NCBI RefSeq assembly: GCF_016863035.1
Contig: NZ_BOOC01000002.1
Span: 248,001 to 312,000 of the forward strand
Length of the DNA: 64,000 bases
Direction of reading: 5' to 3'
Source: Microbispora corallina
GTDB taxonomy: Bacteria; Actinomycetota; Actinomycetes; Streptosporangiales; Streptosporangiaceae
Shown: positions 15,277-26,442 of the stretch, piece after piece
Layout of the letters: every line of letters starts with the position of its first letter
How positions within the stretch are numbered: position 1 is the first letter of the stretch
Translations under genes and position numbers: made by a program
Notes under the pieces: model-generated
Databases searched by the model: none
What the model was told of the DNA's origin: nothing
Seen by the model: the letters and a program-made list of their open reading frames with translations, nothing else

Positions 15277-16662
15277 TCAGGCGAACGTGCTCTCGGGGTC
15301 CTCAAGGAGGTCCTTGAGGGCCCGGAGGTAGAGGGCGGCGTCCCGTCCGTTGACGAGGCGGTGGTCGTAGGCGAGGCCGATGTTCGCGTACGTCCGGCTG
15401 ACGACCTCGCCGCTGCGCAATTGGAGCACCTCCTGCGGGGAGGCGACGGCCAGGGCGCAGGCGTGGCCCGGGAAGATCAACGGGATCGCGAGCGTGACGT
15501 CGCCGTCGTGGTGCAGGGTGACGACGATGTTGGCCCCCGCCAGGTCGTCCTCCCGGAAGTCGCCGGTGGCGGCGGCGAGGCGGTACTCCATGAGCCGCGC
15601 CGCCACCTCCTTCAGCGACCGGCGGCCGGCGTCATGGATGACCGGCACGAACAGCCCGGCGCCGGCGTCCATCGTGACCCCGATGTGCGGGGCGTCGGGA
15701 AGCAGCGCCGTCCGCTCGTCCGCGAGCGTGGCGTACAGCAGGGGGAAGGCCGCGTGCAGGCGGGCGACCGCGCAGGTCACCAGCTCGGGCAGGCCGACCG
15801 GCCGCCTGACCTCGCGGGTCAGCCGGGCCGCCAGCGCGAGCGCGTCCCCGACGTCGATCCGCATGACCGTGTACGCCGCCGGGATCGTCTCATGCGAGGC
15901 GCGCACGGCCCGCGCCACCGCCCGCTGCACCCGGGACAGCTCGTAGGACGTACCGCTCGCGCCGCCGGAGGACGGCCGCCACCCGGCGCCGCCGGGCCGC
16001 CCGTCGTCGTCGCCGCGCCCGGCGTCCCCCGCCTGTCCGGCCCGGGCCGCCTCCCCCACCTGTCCGGCCCGGCCACCCTCTCCCGCCGGGGCGAGGCGGG
16101 CCGCGGCCAGGCGCTCGACATCGGTCCGGCGGACCACGGGGACGCCGAGCGCGCGCAGCTCGGCGGGGTCGACGCCCAGTTCCTCGATCAGGGCGCGCGC
16201 GGGAGCCGTGATCACCGGTTCCCGCGCGTCCACGGGCGCCGCGCCCGTCGTCTCCGGCGCGCCCGCGCCGGTCACGGCGTGCCCAGGCCGAGTGACTGCG
16301 GTCGCGGCGTCGACGGGCGAACGAGAGCCGGTCGCGGCGTGCGCAGGCGGAGTGGCGCCGGTCGCGGCGTCCACAGGCGAGCCGGAGCCGGTCGCGGCAT
16401 CCGTGGACGGGGCGTCGGCGGGCGGGGTGGCGTCGGCGGTGAGGCGGGCGATCAGGTCGCCGGGGGCGCAGTCGGCGTTGAGGGGCAGCACCCGCCAAAG
16501 GTACCCGTCCTCCTCAGCGACCAGTTCCTCGGTGGCCTTGGAGGTCTCCAGGACCGCGACCGGGTCGCCGGAGGCGACCGCCCCGCCGTCCTCGGCCACC
16601 CATTCGACCAGGACGTACGAGGTGTCGTTGTTGTTGAGCTTCGGCACCCGGATGTCAGTCAC
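15277..16662 (-). CDS. Dihydrolipoamide acyltransferase (E2)-like component of a 2-oxoacid dehydrogenase complex
   Basis: The 461-residue protein has an N-terminal lipoyl domain with the lipoyl-lysine Lys42 in LETSKATEE, a repetitive Ala/Thr/Pro linker (about 85-140), an E1/E3-binding segment (PARALIEELGVDPAELRALG), a second flexible linker, and a C-terminal acyltransferase domain ending in DHRLVNGRD with the catalytic His434. E2 passes an acyl group from lipoamide to CoA or another thiol. The GTG start overlaps the E1-beta stop by 8 bases, so it is the last gene of a coupled five-gene arm. No dihydrolipoamide dehydrogenase (E3) gene is in the window. The linker is encoded by 30-bp tandem repeats. 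Context suggests a dedicated biosynthetic role, not housekeeping. Confidence 0.85.
   Translation of the reverse strand: MTDIRVPKLNNNDTSYVLVEWVAEDGGAVASGDPVAVLETSKATEELVAEEDGYLWRVLPLNADCAPGDLIARLTADATPPADAPSTDAATGSGSPVDAATGATPPAHAATGSRSPVDAATAVTRPGHAVTGAGAPETTGAAPVDAREPVITAPARALIEELGVDPAELRALGVPVVRRTDVERLAAARLAPAGEGGRAGQVGEAARAGQAGDAGRGDDDGRPGGAGWRPSSGGASGTSYELSRVQRAVARAVRASHETIPAAYTVMRIDVGDALALAARLTREVRRPVGLPELVTCAVARLHAAFPLLYATLADERTALLPDAPHIGVTMDAGAGLFVPVIHDAGRRSLKEVAARLMEYRLAAATGDFREDDLAGANIVVTLHHDGDVTLAIPLIFPGHACALAVASPQEVLQLRSGEVVSRTYANIGLAYDHRLVNGRDAALYLRALKDLLEDPESTFA
16262..16405. repeat. 30-bp tandem repeats in the E2 linker
   Basis: The core cggtcgcggc recurs at 16299, 16329, 16359 and 16389, with a one-base variant at 16269: five units of 30 bp in frame. 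They encode a ten-residue AATGxxxPxx repeat in the flexible linker between lipoyl and binding domains. Confidence 0.85.
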
Positions 16663-17668
16663 GCAGGGCCTCCAGCACCGCGTCGTGGATCGTGGACTCC
16701 TGCACGAGGACGCTCCGCTCCAGGTGGAGGGCGGTGGGGATCACGCTGTCGGCCGAGTGGACGAGCGTCACCGGCCGCCGCAGGTCCCGCCACAGGTGGG
16801 CGTGGATCCGGTGGGCGACCTCGCTCCCCCACGTGCCGCCCGCCGTGCTCTCTTCGGCGACGAGCACGGCCCGCGCCCGGCGCAGCGACGGCAGCAGCGG
16901 CTCGACGTCGAAGGGGTGGAGCCGGGACGGCACGACGAGTGTGCAGCTCACCTCCTGCTCCAGCAGCAGCCGGCGCATCGCGCCCACCGCGCGCTCCACC
17001 ATCCCGCCGGGGGCGATGATCACGCAGTCCGCGGCCTCCGGGTCCTCGAGGAACACCCGGGCCGCGCCCGCCGTCCCGCCGGACCCCGCCAGGTGGTCGT
17101 GGAGGAACAGGTCCCCCACGTCGTGCATCCGCCGCGTGTAGAGGACCTTGTCCTCGAAGAACACCGCCGGCCGGCCGGCGGCCAGCATCTCCTCCAGCAC
17201 GACGCGGTTGTCGTGCAGGGGCGACATCTCGTACACCGACAGCCCGGGCACGCCGACGAAGTGCTTCTGCAGGCTCTGGCTGTGCGTCGGACCGTATCCG
17301 CGGCCGCCCCCGGACGGGCACCGCACGACCATCCGCATGGGCACGTGAGAGCCGTACATCGAGACGGACTTGGCGGCGAAGTTGACGATCTGGTCGAACG
17401 CGAGCGCCACGAAGTCGCCGAACATGATCTCGACGATCGCGGCGTCGCCGCACAGGGCGAGCCCCGCGGCCAGCCCGGTGATGCCCGACTCGCTGATCGG
17501 CGTCCCCAGCACCCGGTCGGGGAACCGGCTCGACAGCCCTTTGGTGATCTTGAAGGCACCGCCGTACGGATCGGTGATGTCCTCCCCGATCACGTACGCC
17601 GAAGGGTCGGCCTCGAGCACCGCGTGCAGGGCGGCGTTGAGGTTCTCCGCTACGCGCACGGGTCCCAC
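16655..17668 (-). CDS. Thiamine-diphosphate-dependent 2-oxoacid dehydrogenase E1 beta subunit
   Basis: The 337-residue protein has the transketolase pyrimidine-binding domain and C-terminal domain of E1 beta. Visible family features are the cofactor-activating Glu in VIGEDITDPYGGAF, TPISESGITGLAAGLAL, FGDFVALAFDQIVNFAAK, and the C-terminal LVAEESTAGGTWGSEVAHRI. With E1 alpha it decarboxylates a 2-oxoacid and transfers the acyl group to the E2 lipoyl arm. A GTG at 17668 overlaps the E1-alpha stop by 19 bases; a GTG at 17659 would overlap by 10. Both imply coupling. The substrate (pyruvate, branched-chain or other) cannot be read from the sequence. Confidence 0.88.
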   Translation of the reverse strand: MGPVRVAENLNAALHAVLEADPSAYVIGEDITDPYGGAFKITKGLSSRFPDRVLGTPISESGITGLAAGLALCGDAAIVEIMFGDFVALAFDQIVNFAAKSVSMYGSHVPMRMVVRCPSGGGRGYGPTHSQSLQKHFVGVPGLSVYEMSPLHDNRVVLEEMLAAGRPAVFFEDKVLYTRRMHDVGDLFLHDHLAGSGGTAGAARVFLEDPEAADCVIIAPGGMVERAVGAMRRLLLEQEVSCTLVVPSRLHPFDVEPLLPSLRRARAVLVAEESTAGGTWGSEVAHRIHAHLWRDLRRPVTLVHSADSVIPTALHLERSVLVQESTIHDAVLEALRD

Positions 17669-18576
17669 CCCGCCGGGGGCCGGGCGGCGACCTCGGCGAC
17701 GACGGCCGCCACCCGCTCGCGCTGGGCCCGGTCGGCCGCGCCGAACCGGGCGGGGTCCGCCTCGGCGTACCGCCGGTACCAGTCGTTCGCCTCGGCCTGC
17801 CGCACGACCTCGGGGGGCCGGGTGTCGTCGCCCTTGCTGTGCGGGCCGAGCCGGTGGGTGGCGAACTCGACGACCAGCGGCCGTCCCTCGAACCGGACCT
17901 CGGAGACCAGCGGGGCGAGCTCGCGGCGGATGGCCGCCACGTCCGAGGTCTCCACCCCGTGGTGGCGGGCCCCGAACGCCTGGGCCCGGGCCCGTACGGT
18001 GCCGGACATCTGGCGGGTGGTCGGGGTGGACTGGGCGATCCCGTTGTGCTCCACGACCACCAGCAGGGGCAGCCGCCAGAGCGCCGCGAGGTTCAGCGCC
18101 TCGTAGACCGCGCCCTCACCCCAGGTGCCGTCGCCGATGAACACGCAGGCCAGGGCCCCCGGGGAGGTCCGCTTGAGGTGCAGCGCGACCCCCGTCGCGA
18201 CCGGAAGGCTCTCGCCCTGCACGCCGGTGGAGACGTAGCGGTCGCGCAGGATGTGCTGGCTGCCCCCGACCCCCCGGCAGACCGCCCCCTCGCGGCCCAT
18301 GATCTCGGCGAGCAGCCCGGCCGGGTCCTGGAAACGGGCGAGGTAGTGGCCGTGCCCCCGGTGGTTGCTGAAGACGTGGTCGGCCTCGCCGAGCAGCCCC
18401 CGCAGCGCCACCGGCACGTACTCCTGGCCCAGGCACGTGTGCGTCGTCCCGTTGAGCTCGCCGCGCCCGAACAGGTCGAGCAGCGCCAGCTCGAAGTGCC
18501 TGATGAGCAGCAGCAGGTCGAGGTCGTCGCCGGCCGGCAGCGTGGAGCCGGCCAGGGCGACCGACGGCTCGGTCAC
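17650..18576 (-). CDS. Thiamine-diphosphate-dependent 2-oxoacid dehydrogenase E1 alpha subunit
   Basis: The 308-residue protein carries the ThDP-binding motif GDG (148-150) ... N178, and other E1-alpha features: HTCLGQEYVPVALRG, SNHRGHGHYLA, GREGAVCRGVGGSQH and the QSTPTTRQMSG loop region. It is short for an E1 alpha (most are 320-400 residues) and resembles acetoin/pyruvate dehydrogenase-type subunits. The GTG at 18576 overlaps the stop of the condensation-carrier gene (GTGA). That coupling places a 2-oxoacid dehydrogenase complex directly inside an NRPS-like operon, which argues for a specialised acyl supply or transfer role. Confidence 0.87.
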   Translation of the reverse strand: MTEPSVALAGSTLPAGDDLDLLLLIRHFELALLDLFGRGELNGTTHTCLGQEYVPVALRGLLGEADHVFSNHRGHGHYLARFQDPAGLLAEIMGREGAVCRGVGGSQHILRDRYVSTGVQGESLPVATGVALHLKRTSPGALACVFIGDGTWGEGAVYEALNLAALWRLPLLVVVEHNGIAQSTPTTRQMSGTVRARAQAFGARHHGVETSDVAAIRRELAPLVSEVRFEGRPLVVEFATHRLGPHSKGDDTRPPEVVRQAEANDWYRRYAEADPARFGAADRAQRERVAAVVAEVAARPPAGWDPCA

Positions 18577-20165
18577 CGGCCGCTGCCCGCGGCCGAGCCG
18601 GCCGGGTCCCCGGCCTCCGCCGCGTGCACGGATCCGGACGTGTGAGCCGGCGCGGGCCGGTGGCCGGCCTCCGCCGCGTGAGCCGGCGCGGGCCCGTCCC
18701 CGGCCTCCGCCCCGTGAGCCGGCGCGGCCGGGTCCGCGCCGATGGACTCCAGGACGCCGCTGATCGTCGGCGTGTCGAAGAACACGTCGAGCGGCACCTC
18801 GATGCCCAGCCGCTTGCGCATGCGGGCGATGATCTGCGTGATGGTCAGGGAGTGGCCGCCGAGATCGAACAGGTCCTCGTCGTCGCCGACCTCGTCGATG
18901 CCGAGCACCTCCTGCCAGATCGCCCTGATCTCGTCGGCGAGGGTCGCCGGCCCGGCGCCGCCCGTCGAGATCTCCCCGAGAACAATGTCTGGATTCGTCA
19001 TGATGGCTTTGAGGTCCTCCGCTATCTGGGTGACACCCGAGAGGGCGTGGGAGCTGTACTGCATGACCACGGTCAGGCCCTCTGGGCCGTCGACCGCCTG
19101 GAGGTGCAGCGCGCTGCGGACGGCGTGGTTGAACACCGCCCAGTCGACCTTCGCGCGCAGATCGGCGAATGCGGGCTCGGACTCCTCCCGCCGCCTCCGG
19201 TAGCTCACCGAGACCGGCGCGAGGGCCGTGCGGGGCCGCAGCCCCCTGACGGCCCGGGCTAGCGGCACCGGCCGGAACCGGTACAGCTCCCGCAGGTCGT
19301 CGTGGAGCCGGACCGCGAGCCCGGCCACCGTCGTCTCCGGGGACGGCGACGACCAGACCGGGAGCTCGTTGACGAACAGGCCGATGTGGTCCCGGAACTC
19401 GGGTGTGCGGGTCGAGACGTCGACGGCGCACACCGGGGCCTCGTTGCCGTACGCGAACAGCAGGGCGTGCACGGACGCGAGGAACACCTCGAACCGGGAG
19501 GCGCCCGGCACGTCGGGCATCCGCCCGGCGAACGTGTGGACCGCGCCCTCGCCCGCACCCCGTGTGAGCGCGGACGGGTCGAGACCGGGGATCCTCACCT
19601 CGCCGGGCTCCCGCCAGCGGGCGCTCCAGTAGGCGCGCGCCGCGCCGAGGTCGGCCGCGACCCGCTCGCGCTCGGCCGCCGCGTGGTCGGCGTACGACCG
19701 GTCGAGCCGCCGCAGGGCCCGGCCGTTGTACAGGGCGGCGAGGTCGCGGACGAGGACGTCCTTCGACTCGCCGTCGAAGACCAGGTGGTGGGCCACGACG
19801 ACGAGCGCGTGCCGGGTGGCCGACAGCCGGGCCAGCCGGAACCGGGCCAGCGGGCCCCGCTCGACGTCGAACGGCCGCAGGGTCTCCTCCCGGACCAGCG
19901 CGTCGAGGTCGTCGGCGGCGGTGGCCCTGATGGCGGGGCGGGCGCCGGGCACCTCGACCGGGATGCCGTCGCGCTCCTGGATCGCGGTGGACAGCACGGG
20001 GTGCCGCCGGAGAAGCGCCTCGCACGCCTGGATGAGCCCGCACGCGTCCAGCGCGCCGTCGAGTGTGATCACCAGCGGCATGTGGTACGCCGAGCCGGCC
20101 CGGCCCATGCGCTCGGTGATCCACATGCCGACCTGGGCGAACGACGCCGGAGAGGGGTCGGTCAC
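18573..20165 (-). CDS. NRPS-type condensation domain fused to a carrier (thiolation) domain
   Basis: The 530-residue protein has a condensation domain (about 1-395) with the intact active-site motif HHLVFDG (His126, catalytic His127, Asp131, Gly132). A carrier domain follows (about 405-475) with the phosphopantetheine attachment Ser439 in LFDLGGHSLT. The last 55 residues are a low-complexity tail of Pro/Ala/His/Glu/Gly repeats. Condensation domains form amide or ester bonds between carrier- or CoA-bound acyl groups and a nucleophile. The GTG at 20165 overlaps the stop of the adenylation gene by four bases. There is no thioesterase or reductase domain, so release must occur by another route. 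Confidence 0.87.
   Translation of the reverse strand: MTDPSPASFAQVGMWITERMGRAGSAYHMPLVITLDGALDACGLIQACEALLRRHPVLSTAIQERDGIPVEVPGARPAIRATAADDLDALVREETLRPFDVERGPLARFRLARLSATRHALVVVAHHLVFDGESKDVLVRDLAALYNGRALRRLDRSYADHAAAERERVAADLGAARAYWSARWREPGEVRIPGLDPSALTRGAGEGAVHTFAGRMPDVPGASRFEVFLASVHALLFAYGNEAPVCAVDVSTRTPEFRDHIGLFVNELPVWSSPSPETTVAGLAVRLHDDLRELYRFRPVPLARAVRGLRPRTALAPVSVSYRRRREESEPAFADLRAKVDWAVFNHAVRSALHLQAVDGPEGLTVVMQYSSHALSGVTQIAEDLKAIMTNPDIVLGEISTGGAGPATLADEIRAIWQEVLGIDEVGDDEDLFDLGGHSLTITQIIARMRKRLGIEVPLDVFFDTPTISGVLESIGADPAAPAHGAEAGDGPAPAHAAEAGHRPAPAHTSGSVHAAEAGDPAGSAAGSGR
18664..18735. repeat. 36-bp repeats in the carrier-protein tail
   Basis: Two near-identical 36-bp units begin at 18664 and 18700 (ccggcctccgccgcgtg... 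and a one-base variant), with a partial third copy at about 18610. They are in frame and encode PAPAHAAEAG-like repeats after the carrier domain. Confidence 0.75.
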
Positions 20166-21580
20166 GCGCGCCCCCGCAGGGCCCGTTTGTCCACCTTGCC
20201 GCCCCGGTTGCGCGGCAGGGCGTCGAGCGTCACGACGTCGGCCGGGATCTCGTGCGGGGCGAGCCGCCCGGACAGGAACGCCCGCAGGTCGGCGGCGGAG
20301 GCCTCCTCCCGCAGGACGACGGCCGCGGTGACGGTCATGCCGAGCACGGGGTGGGGCACGCCGTACGCCGCGGCCTCGACCACGGCGGGGTGGGCGTGCA
20401 GCGCGTCCTCCACCTTGAGCGTGGACACCTTGAACGCCCCCGACTTGATCACGTCGCTCTCGCGGTCGACGAGGTAGAGGTAGCCCTCCTCGTCGAGGTA
20501 GCCGAGGTCGCCCATCCTGATCCAGCCGTCGCGGAAGACGGCCGGGCCCTCGCGGGAGTCGTTGTAGTACGAGCGGGGCGCCGCGGGCGAGCGCATCCAC
20601 ACCTCGCCCGTCTCCCCCGGTGGGAGCGCCTCACCCGTGGGCGAGGCGACCCGGACGTCGCCGCCCGCCGCCGCCCTGCCGACCGAGCCGGGACGCTCCG
20701 GGTCGAAGATCATGATCGTCTGGGCCGGGGCGGCCTCGGTCGAGGTGTAGTAGTTCGTGATCGTGGCGTTGGGGAAGAGCCCGCCGAGCCCGACGGCCAC
20801 CGGCGAGGGCAGCGGGGCGGCGGCCGAGCCGAGCAGCAGCACACTGGACAGGTCGTGGGCGCCCCGGTCGTTCAGCAGCTCGATGCCCATCGCGGGCACC
20901 AGGAACACCGTGCCGGCCCGGTACCGCTCGATGAGCCGGGCGAACCTCCCGGGCGTGAACCGCGGCAGGGTCACCACGGCCGGGTGCGCGGTGAGCGCGT
21001 TCACCAGCATCAGCTGCCCGGCGTTGGTCCCGATCGGGAACGCGTGGACGAGGTGGCGGGAGTGCGCGAACGCCCGGTGCCGCGGCCGAAGGCGGGTCCC
21101 ATAGGCCAGGTTGGCGTGGCTCGCCGCGACGCCCTTGGCCGTCCCCGTGGTGCCCGAGGTGTAGAGGATCTGGGCGAGCGCGCCGGGCCCCGGGGGCGCG
21201 GGCGGCGGCTGGGACCCGGGCGGGAGCGCCGCGGGGTCGGTCAGCACGATCGAGGCGCCGCAGTGGGCCACGATCCGTCCGATCTCGGCGTCGGGTGTGC
21301 GGTCCGACAGCGGGACCGCCACCGCCCCCGCTCTGAGGACGCCTGCGAACGTGACCGCGTAGTCGATCCACTCCGACGCCGGGAACACCAGCACGACCCG
21401 ATCTCCGGGCCCGACCCCCGCGGCGAGCAGCGAGGACGCCACCGCGGCCGACCGCTTCTCCCACTCCCCGAAGGTGAGCTCGCCGACACCGTCGACGATC
21501 ATCGCGACGCCCGCCGGCTCGTCGGCGGCGCGGGCGGCCAGGAGGCCGGGAAGCGTCGGAACCTCCAGCGCGGTCCTCAT
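20162..21580 (-). CDS. AMP-forming acyl/adenylation enzyme (ANL superfamily)
   Basis: The 472-residue enzyme has the P-loop YTSGTTGTAKG (140-150), the NYYTSTEAAP region (motif A5), GWIRMGDLGYLDEEG (A7/A8 hinge) and the C-terminal lysine Lys462 in NRGGKVDKR. It activates a carboxylate as acyl-AMP, presumably for loading on the carrier domain encoded next. The A4 region reads HAFPIGTNAGQ and lacks the Asp that binds the alpha-amino group in amino-acid-activating domains, so a non-amino acid substrate is more likely. The ATG at 21580 has GGAG five bases upstream; ATG 21583 and GTG 21586 are in frame. It is the first gene of the left arm. Confidence 0.85.
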   Translation of the reverse strand: MRTALEVPTLPGLLAARAADEPAGVAMIVDGVGELTFGEWEKRSAAVASSLLAAGVGPGDRVVLVFPASEWIDYAVTFAGVLRAGAVAVPLSDRTPDAEIGRIVAHCGASIVLTDPAALPPGSQPPPAPPGPGALAQILYTSGTTGTAKGVAASHANLAYGTRLRPRHRAFAHSRHLVHAFPIGTNAGQLMLVNALTAHPAVVTLPRFTPGRFARLIERYRAGTVFLVPAMGIELLNDRGAHDLSSVLLLGSAAAPLPSPVAVGLGGLFPNATITNYYTSTEAAPAQTIMIFDPERPGSVGRAAAGGDVRVASPTGEALPPGETGEVWMRSPAAPRSYYNDSREGPAVFRDGWIRMGDLGYLDEEGYLYLVDRESDVIKSGAFKVSTLKVEDALHAHPAVVEAAAYGVPHPVLGMTVTAAVVLREEASAADLRAFLSGRLAPHEIPADVVTLDALPRNRGGKVDKRALRGRA

Positions 21581-21630
21581 CATCACTCCGAATAGATCGG
21601 ATGAATATCACATACCGAAATAGGGAGGAA

Positions 21631-21658
21631 ACTTTAATACTGAAAGGAATGTTTCCAA
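21631..21658 (-). promoter_or_regulatory. Candidate promoter of the adenylation-to-E2 arm
   Basis: On the minus strand TTGGAA (21658-21653) is followed after 16 bases by TAAAGT (21636-21631). It overlaps the GGAAAC...GTTTCC inverted repeat (21627-21632 and 21651-21656). Confidence 0.45.
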
Positions 21659-21778
21659 TAATTGCGGGCTAAGTCTGGCATGTCGCAATGACGAGTCACA
21701 AGGGGGTCGCGGCGTCGAGAGGGCCGTCCGCGCCGGGCATTCCGGGCGACCGGAGGGGTTGTGAGCGGCCCGGCGCCG

Positions 21779-21828
21779 TGCCAGACTGACCCCGTCGGGT
21801 AACTGCAAACAACCTTTCCAATTACTGT
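21779..21828 (+). promoter_or_regulatory. Candidate promoter of the carrier/condensation/amidohydrolase-like arm
   Basis: TGCCAGACT at 21779-21787 and a TACTGT -10 element at 21823-21828 mirror the left-arm promoter. The -35 (TAACTG, 17 bases upstream) is weak, suggesting activator dependence. Confidence 0.4.
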
Positions 21829-22183
21829 GCGCCGGGGGCGCTCACCTCGGCCTTCGAGCTGCATTCATCCGAGCACAGGGGGCTACGCGGGGATGCTTGC
21901 GACCTCGGGCGTTCCATTCTTCCGGGACGACGGCGACCGCCGCTCCCGCACGTGCGCGTCGCGCACCGCGCCTGCCGGATCCTGCCCCGGCGCCCAGCCG
22001 TACGGCCCGATGACCCCACGTCCCGTGGCACGCGCGGGGATCACCATGGCCCTGCCGGACTCCTCGTCGGGGAAACCCGGGCCGGAACACGGGCGGGAGA
22101 GGTCCGTAAAGCGGTCGAGACACGGCCCGGGGAGCGGCCAGTATCGGAACCGGTGGATCAGGAACCCGGCAGGGAGGCAGGAG

Positions 22184-22417
22184 ATGAAGGAGAGACTGGC
22201 GGAGCTGGTGTCGGAGTCGTGCGACGGACAGGTCAGCGCCGCCGAGGTCATGGCGGCGACGGTCCCGCTGTCGTACCTCGGGGTCACCTCGCTCGCGCAG
22301 ATGCGGCTCATCGACGCGCTGGAACGGGAGTACGGCGTGGAGATCGACCTCGGCGGCGACGTCTCGTTCCTCGACAGCCTGGACGGCCTGGCGGCCTGGG
22401 TGTCGGCGGCCCGATGA
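22184..22417 (+). CDS. Free-standing acyl/peptidyl carrier protein
   Basis: The 77-residue protein is a single four-helix carrier domain with the phosphopantetheine site Ser36 in YLGVTSLAQMRLID, which matches the LGx(D/T)SL consensus. It would carry an acyl or aminoacyl thioester for the condensation enzyme that follows. The ATG at 22184 has a GGGAGG-rich ribosome site about 8 bases upstream. Its stop overlaps the next start (ATGA). The locus therefore has two carrier domains, one fused to a condensation domain in the left arm and this free one. Confidence 0.85.
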   Translation: MKERLAELVSESCDGQVSAAEVMAATVPLSYLGVTSLAQMRLIDALEREYGVEIDLGGDVSFLDSLDGLAAWVSAAR

Positions 22418-23700
22418 TCGCATTCTCCGGCGCGCGCTCCGGCACGGCCCCGCTCACGTGGGGCCAGCGGGCGATCTGGGACGCCATCGGGCGGACCGCC
22501 CCCGACGACCGCTACTTCAACTTCGGGCGTGTGCTGGAGGTGCCGCGGGGGGCGCGGCCCGCGTCGGTGGCCCACGTGTCGCGGGCCGTCGGCCTGCTGG
22601 TCGAGCGGCACGAGGCGCTGCGGACGCTGGTCGCGCCCGGCCCCCGCCAGGACCTGCGCGACCGGGGCGCCGTCGAGGTCGCGATCGCGCCGGAGCGGGA
22701 CCCGGAGGCCGTGCTGGCGGAGCTGTGCGGCACGGCCTTCGACTACGAGAGGGAGTGGCCGCTGCGCGTGGCGCTGGTGACGGAGGGCTCCGCCGCCGGC
22801 GAGGAGGTCACGCATATCGTCCTCGCGTTCTGCCACATGGCCGCCGACGGGCTCGGGGCCGAGCGCGTCCTGCGCGACCTGCGGCTCATCCTGCTGCGCG
22901 GCGGCCTCCGCGAGGGGCCGCCGCCGCAGCCGCTCGACCTCGCCCAGTGGCAGGGCTCGGCGGCCGGCCGCCGGCAGGCCGCGGGCGCGGCCGCCCACTG
23001 GGAGCGCGAGCACCGCAGGATCCCGCCCACGATGTTCCACGTGGCCTCGGGCGCGGCCGAGCGGCCGCCGATCCGGCGGGCCCTGCTCACCTCGCCGGCC
23101 GCGGACATGGCCGCCCAGCGCCTGGCCGTCCGGCACGGCGCGAGCACCTCGACCGTGCTGCTGACGGCCGTGAGCGCGATGGTGGCGGAGCTGACCGGCC
23201 ACGAGACCGTCGCCGTGCTGCCGATCGTGGGCAACCGCTTCCGCCACGACACCCGCGCGGCAGTCACCACGCTGTCCCAGGAGGGCCTTTTCGTCCTGGA
23301 CGTGGCGGAGGAGGGCTTCGCCGACCTGCTCGCGCGGGCCCGGCCCGCCGTCCTGCGGGCCTACCGGAGCGGCTACCACGACCCGGGCGACCGCGAACGG
23401 GTGGTGGCCGAGGCGAGCCGCGACCGCGGCGTCCCCGTCCACCCGTACTGCTGCTTCAACGACATGCGCTTCGCGGAGCGGGCCGTCTACCGCGACGAGG
23501 CGCCGATCAAGGAGGCGCTGGACGCGACGCGGATCGCCTGGCCGCTCAGCCAGGACCGGCTCAACTGCCGCTTCTGCGTGCACGTCAACGAGGGCGGGCG
23601 GATCTCGCTGACGGCCGACACGCGGTGGCTGGCGACGGCGGACATGGAGCGGTTCCTCGTCGAGCTGGAACGGCTGCTGGTCGAGGCGGCGCTGCGATGA
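22414..23700 (+). CDS. Free-standing condensation-domain enzyme with CHxxxDG motif
   Basis: The 428-residue protein is recognisable as a condensation-superfamily acyltransferase by LTWGQRAIWDAIGR (C1-like), VERHEALRT (C2-like) and LAFCHMAADGLGAERV (C3). The C3 motif reads Cys140-His141-Met-Ala-Ala-Asp145-Gly146, so the catalytic second His and the structural Asp are kept while the first His is Cys. Later motifs include LPIVGNRFRHD and PYCCFNDMRF. Such stand-alone enzymes join a carrier-bound acyl group to an amine or alcohol. Its ends overlap both neighbours by four bases, so it is translationally coupled to the carrier and to the dimethylformamidase-like gene. Confidence 0.82.
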   Translation: MIAFSGARSGTAPLTWGQRAIWDAIGRTAPDDRYFNFGRVLEVPRGARPASVAHVSRAVGLLVERHEALRTLVAPGPRQDLRDRGAVEVAIAPERDPEAVLAELCGTAFDYEREWPLRVALVTEGSAAGEEVTHIVLAFCHMAADGLGAERVLRDLRLILLRGGLREGPPPQPLDLAQWQGSAAGRRQAAGAAAHWEREHRRIPPTMFHVASGAAERPPIRRALLTSPAADMAAQRLAVRHGASTSTVLLTAVSAMVAELTGHETVAVLPIVGNRFRHDTRAAVTTLSQEGLFVLDVAEEGFADLLARARPAVLRAYRSGYHDPGDRERVVAEASRDRGVPVHPYCCFNDMRFAERAVYRDEAPIKEALDATRIAWPLSQDRLNCRFCVHVNEGGRISLTADTRWLATADMERFLVELERLLVEAALR

Positions 23701-25619
23701 CCCCCTCCGGCGTCCGCCACCCCCGTGAGCCCGTCGTCCGCGCGTACGCGGCCGCCACGTCGTGCGCGCAGGGCGAGACGCTGGAGTTCCGGCTGGACAC
23801 CTCGGCGACGGTGGGGGTCACCGTCCACGACGTGACGAGCGACCGGCTCGTCCTGGCCGACTCGGTGCGGGGGCCCGAGTGGACGCTGCGGGTGCCGGAG
23901 ACGTGGCCGAGCTCGCTCTACCGGGCCCGGTTCACGCCCGGGCCGCCCGAGACCGGGATGCCCGTCCCCCGGGCGACCGGCGACCTGCCCGGGACCGGGA
24001 CGAGCGCCGACGACGAGGTCTACTTCGTCGTACGGCAGGCCGTCCCGGGCTCGGCGTCGCCGATCCTCGTGTCGATCCCGTTCACCACGTGGCAGGCGTA
24101 CAACCGGGCCGGCGTGCCCGGCGAGAGCGTCTACTGGACCGAGCAGCCCGACCGGGCGGCCCGGGTGACGTTCGACCGCCCCGGCGGCGGCCCGCCTCCC
24201 GAGCGGTGGGAGGACGGCCTGCTGCGCTGGCTCGGCCCGGCCGGCTACACGGTGGAGTACTGCTCAGGGCTCGACCTCGAGCCGGGACTCCTATCGGCCT
24301 ACCGGCTGCTGGTGGTGAACGGGCACGACGAGTACTGGTCGGCCCCCATGCGCGACGCCTGCGAGGACTTCGCCCGGCGCGGCGGCAACATCGCGTTCTT
24401 CTCCGGCAACACCTGCTGGTGGCAGATCCGGATGGAGGGCCGGACCATGGTCTGCCACCGCGACCCGCTGGCCGACCCCGTGGACGACCCCGCGCTGACC
24501 ACCGTCGAGTGGTCGAGCGCCCCCGTCGACCGCCCGGAGAACGCGCTGACCGGCGTGAGCTTCCGCAACGGCGCCGGCGTCTGGGGGCCGTCGATGGCCC
24601 TCATGCGGGAGGAGTCGTACACGGTCCGCTTCGCGGGGCACTGGGTCTTCGAGGGCACCGGCCTGACCGACGGCGACAAGTTCGGCCAGGGCGCGCTCGG
24701 CTACGAGACCGACGCGGCCGAGTTCGAGGAGGTCCTCGGCGTGCCCCGGGTCACCTGCCGGGACGGCACGCCCTCGTCGTTCGTCGTGCTCGCCACCGCC
24801 GACCTGCGGCACTGGAGCGCGTACGGCCAGGGCGGCTGGGCGACCATGGGCCTGTTCACCCGGGGCCGGGGCACGGTGTTCAACGCCGCGACCGTCAACT
24901 GGGGCAACACCCTGCACGACCCGGTCGTCGACCGGATCACCCGCAACGTCCTCGACCGGCTCTCCCGGCCCGCCCGCACGGAGTGGGAGGTCGTCGGGCC
25001 CGTCGCGGACCTGCGCGCGCTGGCCGCCTCCGGCCGGACCCTGTACGCCGTCAGCACCGACGGCGTGCTGCTCACCCGCGAGCTGTGCGGGCAGAACCTG
25101 CGCTGGCGGCCGATCGGCTCCGGCGGCGGGGTGCTCTGCCTCGACGCGCCCCGCGAGGCGGCCGGCGGGCTCGCCACCGGCCTGTACGGCGTGACCCCCG
25201 CGGGGGTGCTCCGCCATCGGCCGGACACGCAGGAGCCGGCCGACTGGGCGGACGTCGGGCGGGTCCCCCCGGACACCGTCGCCCTGGCCGTCAACGACTC
25301 CACGTTCTTCGCGGCGACGTCCCGGGGCCGCCTGTGGGCGCTGCCCTTCGGCGACCTCGCCAGGACCGGCCCCTCCCCCTGGCGGGACGCCGGCGACTCG
25401 GGTGGCGCCGTCGCCCTCAGCGGGAGCAACGGGAGCCTCTACGCGCTCGGCGCCGGCCACCGCGTCCGCACCCGGCCGGCCGCCGCCGCGCCCGCCGCCT
25501 GGACGGACCTGGGCGAGGCCCCGGGGGCGACCGTCCTCGCCGCCCACGCCGGACGGCTGGTGTCGGCGGGCGCCGGCCGGTCGCTGCGCTGGCGGCCCGC
25601 CGCCGGCCCCTGGATCTGA
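23697..25619 (+). CDS. N,N-dimethylformamidase large-subunit-like enzyme with propeller-like C-terminal tail
   Basis: Residues about 100-425 match the DMFase beta-subunit-like fold: SPILVSIPFTTWQAYN, the GHDEYWS motif (Gly209-Ser215), GGNIAFFSGNTCWWQIR, GYETDAAEFEE and TVFNAATVNWGNTL. In Paracoccus DMFase this subunit holds a mononuclear iron bound by two Tyr and one Glu and hydrolyses an amide. From about 428 to 640 there are four or five Trp-containing repeats (LRWRPIGSGGGV, ADWADVGRVP, SPWRDAGDSGG, AAWTDLGEAP) resembling tectonin-like propeller blades. The small DMFase subunit is absent. Coupled by overlap to the condensation gene, it is probably a tailoring or product-releasing step; the substrate is unknown. 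Confidence 0.72.
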   Translation: MTPSGVRHPREPVVRAYAAATSCAQGETLEFRLDTSATVGVTVHDVTSDRLVLADSVRGPEWTLRVPETWPSSLYRARFTPGPPETGMPVPRATGDLPGTGTSADDEVYFVVRQAVPGSASPILVSIPFTTWQAYNRAGVPGESVYWTEQPDRAARVTFDRPGGGPPPERWEDGLLRWLGPAGYTVEYCSGLDLEPGLLSAYRLLVVNGHDEYWSAPMRDACEDFARRGGNIAFFSGNTCWWQIRMEGRTMVCHRDPLADPVDDPALTTVEWSSAPVDRPENALTGVSFRNGAGVWGPSMALMREESYTVRFAGHWVFEGTGLTDGDKFGQGALGYETDAAEFEEVLGVPRVTCRDGTPSSFVVLATADLRHWSAYGQGGWATMGLFTRGRGTVFNAATVNWGNTLHDPVVDRITRNVLDRLSRPARTEWEVVGPVADLRALAASGRTLYAVSTDGVLLTRELCGQNLRWRPIGSGGGVLCLDAPREAAGGLATGLYGVTPAGVLRHRPDTQEPADWADVGRVPPDTVALAVNDSTFFAATSRGRLWALPFGDLARTGPSPWRDAGDSGGAVALSGSNGSLYALGAGHRVRTRPAAAAPAAWTDLGEAPGATVLAAHAGRLVSAGAGRSLRWRPAAGPWI

Positions 25620-25650: not shown

Positions 25651-26346
25651 TCAGAGGTCGACCGGGCCGTACCGGGCGGCCGGGACCCCGCAGGTCATCG
25701 CCCAGTACCGGTCGCCGTACGACCAGTGCCACCACTCCGTCGGGTAGTTGACGAGACCGGCCGCCTCCAGCGCCCCGCCGAGGATCTCCCGGTGCCGCCG
25801 GGCCTGCCGTCCGATGGTGGCGGCCGCCGTGTAGCAGGCGCCGTCGCTCTGCTCGGGATTGGCGTTGACCGCCGTGCCCATGTCGAGCTCGCGTCCGTCA
25901 TCGTCGCACAGCGTGAGGTCCACGGCCGCGCCCGCCGTGTGGGGGGCGACCTCGATGGGCGAGACGTACCGGCTGGCGGCCACGTGCAGCTCCGCCTCCG
26001 ACAGACCGGGGTAGGCGGACCTGAGGTCCTCCTTGTACTCCTCGAAGTACCGCGTCTGCAGCGCCGGCGGCCGATAGCCCTCGACGACCAGGATGTTGCA
26101 CCCGGCGGGCAGGAGGCGCTGCGCCTCCTCCAGGCGGGTCAGCAGCCCCTCACGCAGATGGGCGTAGGCGCCGGCCGGGTCCGCCAGCCGGCCGTCCACC
26201 CGCAGCCTCCCCCGCACGTCGCCCAGAGCCTCTCCGCACTCCTCCACCGGGATGGAGGTCACGCGGGGATCCGAGATCAGCACCACCTCGGCGGTGCCAA
26301 GGGCGATCGGGGACACGGCGAGGCAGTCGCGGGAAGCATCAGGCAT
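25651..26346 (-). CDS. D-alanyl-D-alanine dipeptidase (VanX-type, M15D)
   Basis: The 231-residue zinc peptidase has the VanX signatures: SPIEVAPHTAGAAVDLTL with zinc ligands His136 and Asp143, and EWWHWSYGDRYWA with catalytic Glu204 and ligand His207. Arg92 in EGYRPP corresponds to the substrate Arg of VanX. The spacings match VanX closely. The enzyme splits D-Ala-D-Ala or similar dipeptides in the cytoplasm; in this context a role in cell-wall peptide salvage is plausible, since no vanH or vanA is nearby. I use the ATG at 26346; a TTG at 26355 is possible. It converges on the biosynthetic arm with 31 bases between stops. Confidence 0.88.
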   Translation of the reverse strand: MPDASRDCLAVSPIALGTAEVVLISDPRVTSIPVEECGEALGDVRGRLRVDGRLADPAGAYAHLREGLLTRLEEAQRLLPAGCNILVVEGYRPPALQTRYFEEYKEDLRSAYPGLSEAELHVAASRYVSPIEVAPHTAGAAVDLTLCDDDGRELDMGTAVNANPEQSDGACYTAAATIGRQARRHREILGGALEAAGLVNYPTEWWHWSYGDRYWAMTCGVPAARYGPVDL

Positions 26347-26442
26347 GCGCAGCAACCTATCGCCCGCCGGATCTCCGCCACGCGGGAGGAGGCCCGCCGG
26401 CGGTCGCCACGGCGGTCGCGCAACGCCGCCGCACCGCGCGAG

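What the first reader, a model, noticed from the sequence alone, without database searches (positions are those of the whole stretch)
15277..25619. Compact divergent locus joining NRPS parts, a dedicated 2-oxoacid dehydrogenase complex and a dimethylformamidase-like enzyme
Seen: eight genes in two divergent arms, nearly all with 4-19 base overlaps. Left: adenylation, condensation-carrier, E1 alpha, E1 beta, E2. Right: carrier, condensation, DMFase-like protein with propeller-like tail. Known: the families named are recognisable by motifs. Inferred: an acyl unit from an oxidatively decarboxylated 2-oxoacid and an adenylated acid are joined through two condensation steps on two carriers, and an amide-cleaving or modifying enzyme finishes the product. 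No thioesterase, ketosynthase or reductase is present. I do not recall a described pathway with this set.
Basis: partly seen in the sequence, partly recalled or inferred. Interest (0 to 1): 0.8.

Follow-up and report, generated by a model that had tools for sequence, protein, structure and literature searches.

The report
Glycolyl-loading peptide gene cluster
The eight genes are a conserved core of a family of actinomycete gene clusters that probably load a two-carbon hydroxyacid onto a peptide assembly line, cap it and later trim an amide bond; the product is unknown, so it is a promising unexplored pathway rather than new biochemistry from scratch.

Summary
In detail: eight genes in two divergent arms with 4-19 base overlaps. 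It is not chance: 57 of 69 DMFase-like loci in 297 family genomes have the second condensation gene within 3.5 kb and E1 alpha within 25 kb. In 50 loci from named genomes the core recurs while the NRPS modules beside it vary: none in 11, one of four kinds in 34, and 5 keep the DMFase-like gene alone. The window has no NRPS, but its genome carries such genes on another contig, beside a decayed E2.

E1 alpha is 60-76% identical to cassettes with the architecture of NapB-NapC-NapD and SclQ1-4, published as loading GLYCOLYL onto a carrier, against 29-30% to the genome's housekeeping E1; E2 has HRxxNG, not HRxxDG. Best reading: glycolyl goes onto the carrier of C-T, the acyl ligase caps it, NRPS extends it, and the iron-amidase-like protein cleaves an amide. 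Substrates and product are untested. New variant of a known kind.

The parts
20162..21580 (-). acyl ligase (AMP-binding, acyl-CoA-ligase type, 472 aa)
   Evidence: Pfam AMP-binding and AMP-binding_C; NCBIfam long-chain-fatty-acid--CoA ligase best, below cut-off; PDB FadD5 best; no NRPS-type FDxS A4 motif
18573..20165 (-). condensation-carrier didomain (530 aa); carrier about 18747-18944
   Evidence: Condensation and PP-binding; HHLVFDG and GGHSL; PDB carrier match residues 408-473
17650..18576 (-). E1 alpha-like ThDP subunit of a probable glycolyl-carrier synthase
   Evidence: E1_dh; 60-76% identical to E1 alpha of 9 fused NapD-like and 11 unfused cassettes; ThDP motif GDG..N kept
16655..17668 (-). 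E1 beta-like subunit
   Evidence: Transket_pyr and Transketolase_C
15277..16662 (-). E2-like lipoyl acyltransferase with HRLVNG in place of HRxxDG
   Evidence: lipoyl and 2-oxoacid_dh; motif counts
21581..22183 (.). divergent intergenic region; where many relatives carry NRPS genes; no NRPS remnant found here
22184..22417 (+). stand-alone carrier (77 aa), LGVTSL site
   Evidence: PP-binding 6.8e-7
22414..23700 (+). second, free-standing condensation protein, CHMAADG site
23697..25619 (+). DMFase-like probable iron amidase with C-terminal beta-propeller
25651..26355 (-). M15 D-Ala-D-Ala dipeptidase-like neighbour; more likely chromosomal backbone than core
   Evidence: found in 31 of 54 loci, missing beside D in L028, L030, L035 where the ROK gene follows

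Best explanation
The locus is the constant core of a natural-product pathway family that uses a glycolyl (hydroxyacetyl) building block. E1 alpha/beta (ThDP) take a two-carbon hydroxyacyl unit, probably from a ketose phosphate, pass it to the lipoyl arm of E2, and E2 hands it to the phosphopantetheine of the carrier in the C-T protein encoded directly upstream. The acyl ligase activates a carboxylic acid, most likely onto the stand-alone carrier, and the C domain of C-T joins that acyl group to the hydroxyl of glycolyl. NRPS modules, beside the core in 34 of 50 relatives and on another contig in this genome, extend the chain with Gly-, basic- and Asp-like residues. The free-standing condensation protein makes or releases a further bond, and the DMFase-like iron amidase cleaves an amide, perhaps removing a protecting acyl group. 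Shown here: families, motifs, synteny, place of E1/E2 in the clade of Nap/Scl-type cassettes, variable NRPS insert. Inferred: every substrate, order of steps, acceptor carrier, and the role of the amidase.
For: E1 alpha 60-76% identical to 9 fused and 11 unfused cassettes (a 12th, L097 at 84%, is a window-type left arm), housekeeping E1 29-30%. L150 carries UvrA-like, FAD monooxygenase, E1 alpha, carrier, E1beta-lipoyl-E2 fusion and KASIII by Pfam, the gene set and B-C-D-E order tabled for Nap and Din; L151, L153-L155 look the same by size and start of sequence, L149 and L152 are cut. SclQ1-4, same unfused architecture, is needed for full scleric acid output and glycolate feeding restores it. 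HRxxNG in 30 of 31 cassette E2s, HRxxDG in 2 of 2 housekeeping E2s. A carrier gene adjoins E1 alpha in L092, L095, L096, L146 and L150-L155. In L081 a C-T-like C domain is fused to the Gly-coded module without E1/E2 in the stretch, as expected if that C domain adds the acyl cap. Iron-site H and E invariant in D.
Against: No enzyme activity or product is known. Named NapB, QncN and SclQ2 sequences could not be fetched, so membership rests on architecture-matched relatives. The window has no NRPS and no thioesterase. No carrier gene directly beside E1 alpha in L091, L094, L140, L142. Five of 50 loci keep D alone, and 65 of 122 E1 alpha loci lie away from D, so D is not tied to the glycolyl step. 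Nap-type KASIII is absent. In Scl the acyl cap is added by an ATP-grasp enzyme, not by a C domain.
Confidence: 0.55

Rival explanations
1. One reading: a dedicated 2-oxoacid dehydrogenase makes an ordinary acyl starter from a 2-oxoacid by oxidative decarboxylation, loaded directly on the carrier as proposed for pepteridine.
For: Fold families are those of 2-oxoacid dehydrogenases; the pepteridine pathway links E1, E2-T-C and alpha-ketoacids with feeding data (PMC5384830, passages).
Against: E1 alpha scores 178.2 bits against the PDH equivalog cut-off of 393.85, is 29-30% identical to the own housekeeping E1, and sits in the clade of NapB-like cassettes; E2 has Asn in HRxxDG.
Confidence: 0.15
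2. Glycolyl is made, but serves as a donor (starter) for the NRPS; the acyl ligase and the C domain of C-T act elsewhere in the chain, so there is no acyl-glycolyl ester.
For: In scleric acid glycolyl is proposed to be joined to proline by the NRPS C domain before the benzoyl cap is added.
Against: C precedes T in C-T, so its T is by normal NRPS logic the acceptor site; ligase and C-T genes lie side by side in the loci where both are held.
Confidence: 0.25
3. The window locus is a decaying remnant of a full cluster and makes nothing now.
For: NRPS missing between the arms; D-only loci exist; D is in only 4 of 15 genomes of the own genus; the sister locus on C23 has lost E1 and most of E2.
Against: All eight frames are open, with the same active-site motifs as in relatives; 11 of 50 relatives share the NRPS-free layout, so it is a stable form; NRPS genes persist elsewhere in the genome.
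Confidence: 0.15

Closest known systems
NapB/NapC/NapD (naphthyridinomycin) and DinU/DinT/DinS (dnacin) two-component transketolase with ACP
   Same: E1 alpha about 306 aa, carrier, E1beta-lipoyl-E2; window E1 alpha 60-70% identical to fused-type relatives
   Different: Here E1 beta and E2 are separate genes, the nearest carrier is the T of a C-T didomain, and no KASIII follows
SclQ1-Q4 of scleric acid, (2-(benzoyloxy)acetyl)-L-proline
   Same: Unfused ThDP, pyrimidine/TK-C and lipoyl-acyltransferase genes of 305, 338 and 386 aa; NRPS, thioesterase and MFS parts in the pathway
   Different: Cap added by ATP-grasp SclG, amino acid is proline, no DMFase-like protein and no free-standing C protein in the table passages seen
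Pepteridine locus of Photorhabdus (E1 plus E2-T-C)
   Same: E1/E2 feeding a carrier and a condensation domain
   Different: Acyl from alpha-ketoacids, acceptor is a pterin, T and C fused to E2
N,N-dimethylformamidase large subunit and N-acetyl-(R)-beta-phenylalanine acylase
   Different: 16-24% identity in the structural alignments, beta-propeller tail, no small-subunit gene in the operon
Herbidospora 'nrps-6' of Komaki et al. 2015 (PMC4599437)
   Same: Lists C/T 474 aa plus an NRPS of about 1700 aa, predicted '?-Asn'; fits the Herbidospora loci by size and content (inference; outline and passages seen)
   Different: 'dehydrogenase' occurs 0 times in that text; amidase and core not noted in the passages I saw

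Membership tests
Glycolyl-carrier synthase (NapB/D, QncN/L, SclQ2-4 type) | ThDP alpha and beta subunits plus lipoyl-acyltransferase with a carrier encoded alongside | tested here: met
   in the window the carrier is the T of C-T
Glycolyl-carrier synthase (NapB/D, QncN/L, SclQ2-4 type) | Sequence clade apart from housekeeping E1 | tested here: met
   60-85% within, 29-30% to own housekeeping E1; tree holds only one housekeeping row, on a long branch
Glycolyl-carrier synthase (NapB/D, QncN/L, SclQ2-4 type) | Direct alignment to the named NapB, QncN or SclQ2 proteins | not tested
Glycolyl-carrier synthase (NapB/D, QncN/L, SclQ2-4 type) | Transfers glycolyl to a carrier | not testable with these tools
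   needs enzyme assay
Canonical pyruvate or branched-chain 2-oxoacid dehydrogenase | E1 alpha reaches the equivalog cut-off | tested here: not met
   178.2 against 393.85 bits, TIGR03182
Canonical pyruvate or branched-chain 2-oxoacid dehydrogenase | E2 active site HRxxDG | tested here: not met
   HRLVNG; Asn in 13 of 13 window-type E2s aligned
N,N-dimethylformamidase | Fold of the large subunit's catalytic part | tested here: met
N,N-dimethylformamidase | Iron ligand E521 and catalytic H519 | tested here: met
   aligned to E212 and H210, invariant columns of the 34-row alignment
N,N-dimethylformamidase | Iron ligands Y399 and Y440 | tested here: inconclusive
   Y75 (invariant) and Y135 (90% or more) are candidates by spacing only
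N,N-dimethylformamidase | 15 kDa small subunit encoded with it | tested here: not met
   the right arm 22184-25619 is filled by the three genes named, and the next gene is the M15 peptidase; a small subunit elsewhere in the genome was not sought
NRPS amino-acid adenylation domain (gene 20162-21580) | Asp235 of the FDxS A4 motif | tested here: not met
   FPIGTNAG in its place; reference segment recalled
NRPS condensation domain | HHxxxDG | tested here: met
   C-T: HHLVFDG; free-standing protein: CHMAADG, second His and Asp kept, first His not

The most novel reading that the evidence does not exclude
A split pathway: in this genome the window supplies the only intact glycolyl loading set and the capping genes, while the NRPS (Gly-like, basic, Asp-like, thioesterase fused to an exporter) on contig C23, whose own E1 is gone and E2 is decayed, supplies the peptide. 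The two loci work in trans, and the iron amidase takes off a cryptic acyl group at the end, a role I have not seen described for a DMFase-type enzyme.
Probability: 0.2. Interest if true: 0.75.

Novelty: new variant of a known kind. Interest (0 to 1): 0.55.

Why it matters
Glycolyl-loading cassettes are described, as far as I saw, for a few products only. Here one belongs to the core of a cluster family whose DMFase-like gene occurs in 19 of 68 sampled genera of one family, often at the same chromosomal place (ROK neighbour in 33 and sugar-binding-protein neighbour in 32 of 54 loci), with a variable peptide part and an amidase of a rare iron type. That makes product discovery in many culturable strains direct, and gives the DMFase fold a possible biosynthetic role.

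Tried and rejected
Paper searches for a pathway with dimethylformamidase gave nothing: dimethylformamidase plus 'biosynthetic gene cluster' 0 papers; the four-term search returned 9 papers, none with the word dimethylformamidase; dimethylformamidase plus iron plus tyrosine gave only the structure paper. In the listings of searches I saw no paper naming this gene set; I opened only Komaki's. A search for NRPS fused to thioesterase and MFS gave 0 papers with all five terms. One search (QncN, NapB, SclQ and like terms) gave mostly unrelated NapB papers; search 93 (scleric acid) 23 papers, two opened. The library holds open-licence papers only, so absence is weak. M15 dipeptidase as a ninth core gene: rejected as core. 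NRPS remnant between the arms of the window: none at E below 1. S. fragilis (L039) suggested azaserine from memory; not followed up. The first-pass A-domain code of the ligase (NAMFLGYPA) is unreliable, as the alignment to PheA is uncertain there. Substrate names for NRPS codes (Gly, Arg/Lys-like, Asp) are from recall; Komaki's table gives Gly, Lys and Asp or Asn for modules of similar clusters. Foldseek alone ranks a PCP-C didomain (7kvw), not AmbB, first for the free-standing condensation protein, so the AmbB likeness is not pressed.
Full report
WHAT IS THERE. The right-arm frames start at 22184, 22414 and 23697. The gene called adenylation belongs to the acyl-CoA-ligase branch: the best NCBIfam matches are fatty-acid CoA ligases, below their cut-offs, the best PDB matches FadD5 and malonyl-CoA synthetase. 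The window is G000:C2:248001-312000 of an 8.36 Mb genome.

DOES IT RECUR. A scan with the DMFase-like protein D gave 52 loci, L016-L067; two (L066 Bacteroidota, L067 Pyrinomonadaceae, 31-35% identity) show no other core gene and were left out of the 50-locus counts. Of L016-L065, D is in 50, the free-standing condensation gene C2 in 45, the stand-alone carrier in 44, the ligase in 44, C-T in 43 (some of these last may be short NRPS matches), E1 alpha in 25, E1 beta in 16, E2 in 14; E1/E2 often fall outside the 10 kb flank. The loci come mainly from Streptosporangiaceae genera, plus two Streptomyces and a Catelliglobosispora (D only). In a sample of 297 family genomes D occurs in 68 (69 loci, 19 of 68 genera), E1 alpha in 91, C2 in 78, at the thresholds. 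57 of 69 D loci have C2 within 3.5 kb and E1 alpha within 25 kb; 2 have C2 only, 10 neither, at least two of these ten at a contig end. 64 of 68 D genomes also hold an E1 alpha of this family. In the own genus D is in 4 of 15 genomes, so it is patchy at that level.

WHAT VARIES. Beside the core lie, in L016-L065: no NRPS in 11 (window type), a C-A-T-thioesterase-MFS protein in 18, a Gly-coded module in 5, Gly plus a basic code in 9 (in L057 on the left arm, otherwise between the arms), Gly-coded and Asp-TE-MFS proteins both in 2, and D alone in 5 (tally by me; L060 is a 3.3 kb contig counted among the 11). Domain make-up was checked by Pfam for four proteins only. The window genome carries such NRPS genes on contig C23 (C-A-T-C-A-T, C-A-T-TE-MFS, MbtH, carrier, a C2-like gene) and similar parts on C69 and C6. 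I searched the genomes of 9 of the 11 NRPS-free relatives: eight hold the thioesterase-MFS part elsewhere at 54% identity or more; L042's genome has only weak matches. Such proteins are common in the family, so this does not prove cooperation.

WHAT E1/E2 ARE. The own genome's next best E1 alpha is 29-30% identical; a third match covers about 105 residues. In 394 class-level genomes only 17 reach E 1e-50, and 19 of 392 in genus g85, which I take to be Streptomyces (inference). Sixteen of the 20 matches in that genus were read; in L147 my caller did not recover the E1 alpha gene, so it drops out. L150 was checked by Pfam: UvrA-like, FAD monooxygenase, E1_dh, carrier, E1beta-lipoyl-E2 fusion, KASIII; L151 and L153-L155 look the same by size and start of sequence, L149 is cut before the end of E1 beta and L152 before E1 alpha. 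The dnacin paper's table and one passage give similar sizes for DinX, DinU, DinT, DinS and DinQ and their Nap homologues, and say that napB/napD-like enzymes relate to a hydroxyethyl unit from xylulose 5-phosphate (PMC7570522, passages). The scleric acid paper assigns SclQ1-4 to glycolyl loading by homology to QncN/L/M; deletion lowers but does not abolish product, glycolate restores it (PMC6335953, passages; follow-up PMC13307308, passages). The biochemistry of NapB/D and QncN/L (Peng 2012) I know from recall and these citations only. In the E2 active site the cassette proteins have Asn where housekeeping E2 has Asp: 30 of 31 against 0 of 2; in L096 my pattern found nothing. In a 32-row tree (L157, a partial match, left out) the one housekeeping row hangs on a branch of about 10 and the NapD-fused rows form one group with 95/87 support. 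The backbone of the cassette clade is unresolved, so I do not claim which product type is nearest.

CARRIER AND CAP. In sister cassettes a small carrier gene adjoins E1 alpha (L092, L095, L096; L146, L150-L155). Pfam finds PP-binding above cut-off in L092 and L150 and below cut-off in L095 and L096; the others are judged by start of sequence. In L091, L094, L140 and L142 I saw no carrier gene directly beside E1 alpha. In the window the domain in that place is the T of C-T. In L081 a C-T-like C domain (49% over 423 residues) is joined straight to a Gly-coded module, next to a ligase 59% identical to the window's, with no E1/E2 in the 12 kb stretch. I read this as: that C domain adds the ligase's acyl group, to glycolyl in one case and to Gly in the other. 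Ligase plus free carrier plus specialised C domain resembles daptomycin-type initiation (PMC9113097, start of abstract).

THE SISTER LOCUS ON C23. Beside its NRPS lies a 137-residue frame whose ends match the ends of E2 (50% over 44 residues; 35% over 40), the middle missing; E1 alpha and E1 beta gave no match below E 0.09. G009 has the intact set at what looks like the matching place, judged by neighbouring genes' starts (L091). So the window holds the only intact E1/E2 of this type found in the assembly.

LIMITS. No activity, product, expression or substrate was tested. E-values and thresholds differ between searches. Genomes sampled are unnamed, and the own assembly has 121 contigs.

Noticed in passing
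L078 and L082 (G000:C23:110001-150000): Second NRPS locus in the same genome with a decayed E2 and no E1; candidate partner in trans.
   Followed up: partly
L081 (G000:C69:1-12000): Variant cluster: related acyl ligase, C-T-like C domain fused to Gly- and basic-coded modules, MbtH, distant C2, no E1/E2 or D in the stretch.
   Followed up: partly
L089 (G000:C6:10001-30000): A further C-A-T-TE-MFS-like synthetase beside an FkbH-domain protein, which suggests a glyceryl unit.
   Followed up: no
L016:3054-8432: NRPS with thioesterase and MFS exporter fused in one chain; more than one such protein in several of the genomes searched.
   Followed up: partly
L023, L048, L052, L055, L058: D gene without any other core gene in the stretch; in L052, L055 and L058 near recA and Lhr, as in the window.
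   Followed up: partly
L093 (G018:C11:100001-120000): Carrier, ligase, C-T and E1/E2 present but no C2 and no D in the stretch: the reverse loss.
   Followed up: no
L094, L095: Nap/Scl-type cassettes next to NRPS-like genes and, by start of sequence only, FkbH-like proteins.
   Followed up: no
window 25651-26355: VanX-like M15 dipeptidase next to the cluster; found in 31 of 54 loci; role unknown.
   Followed up: partly
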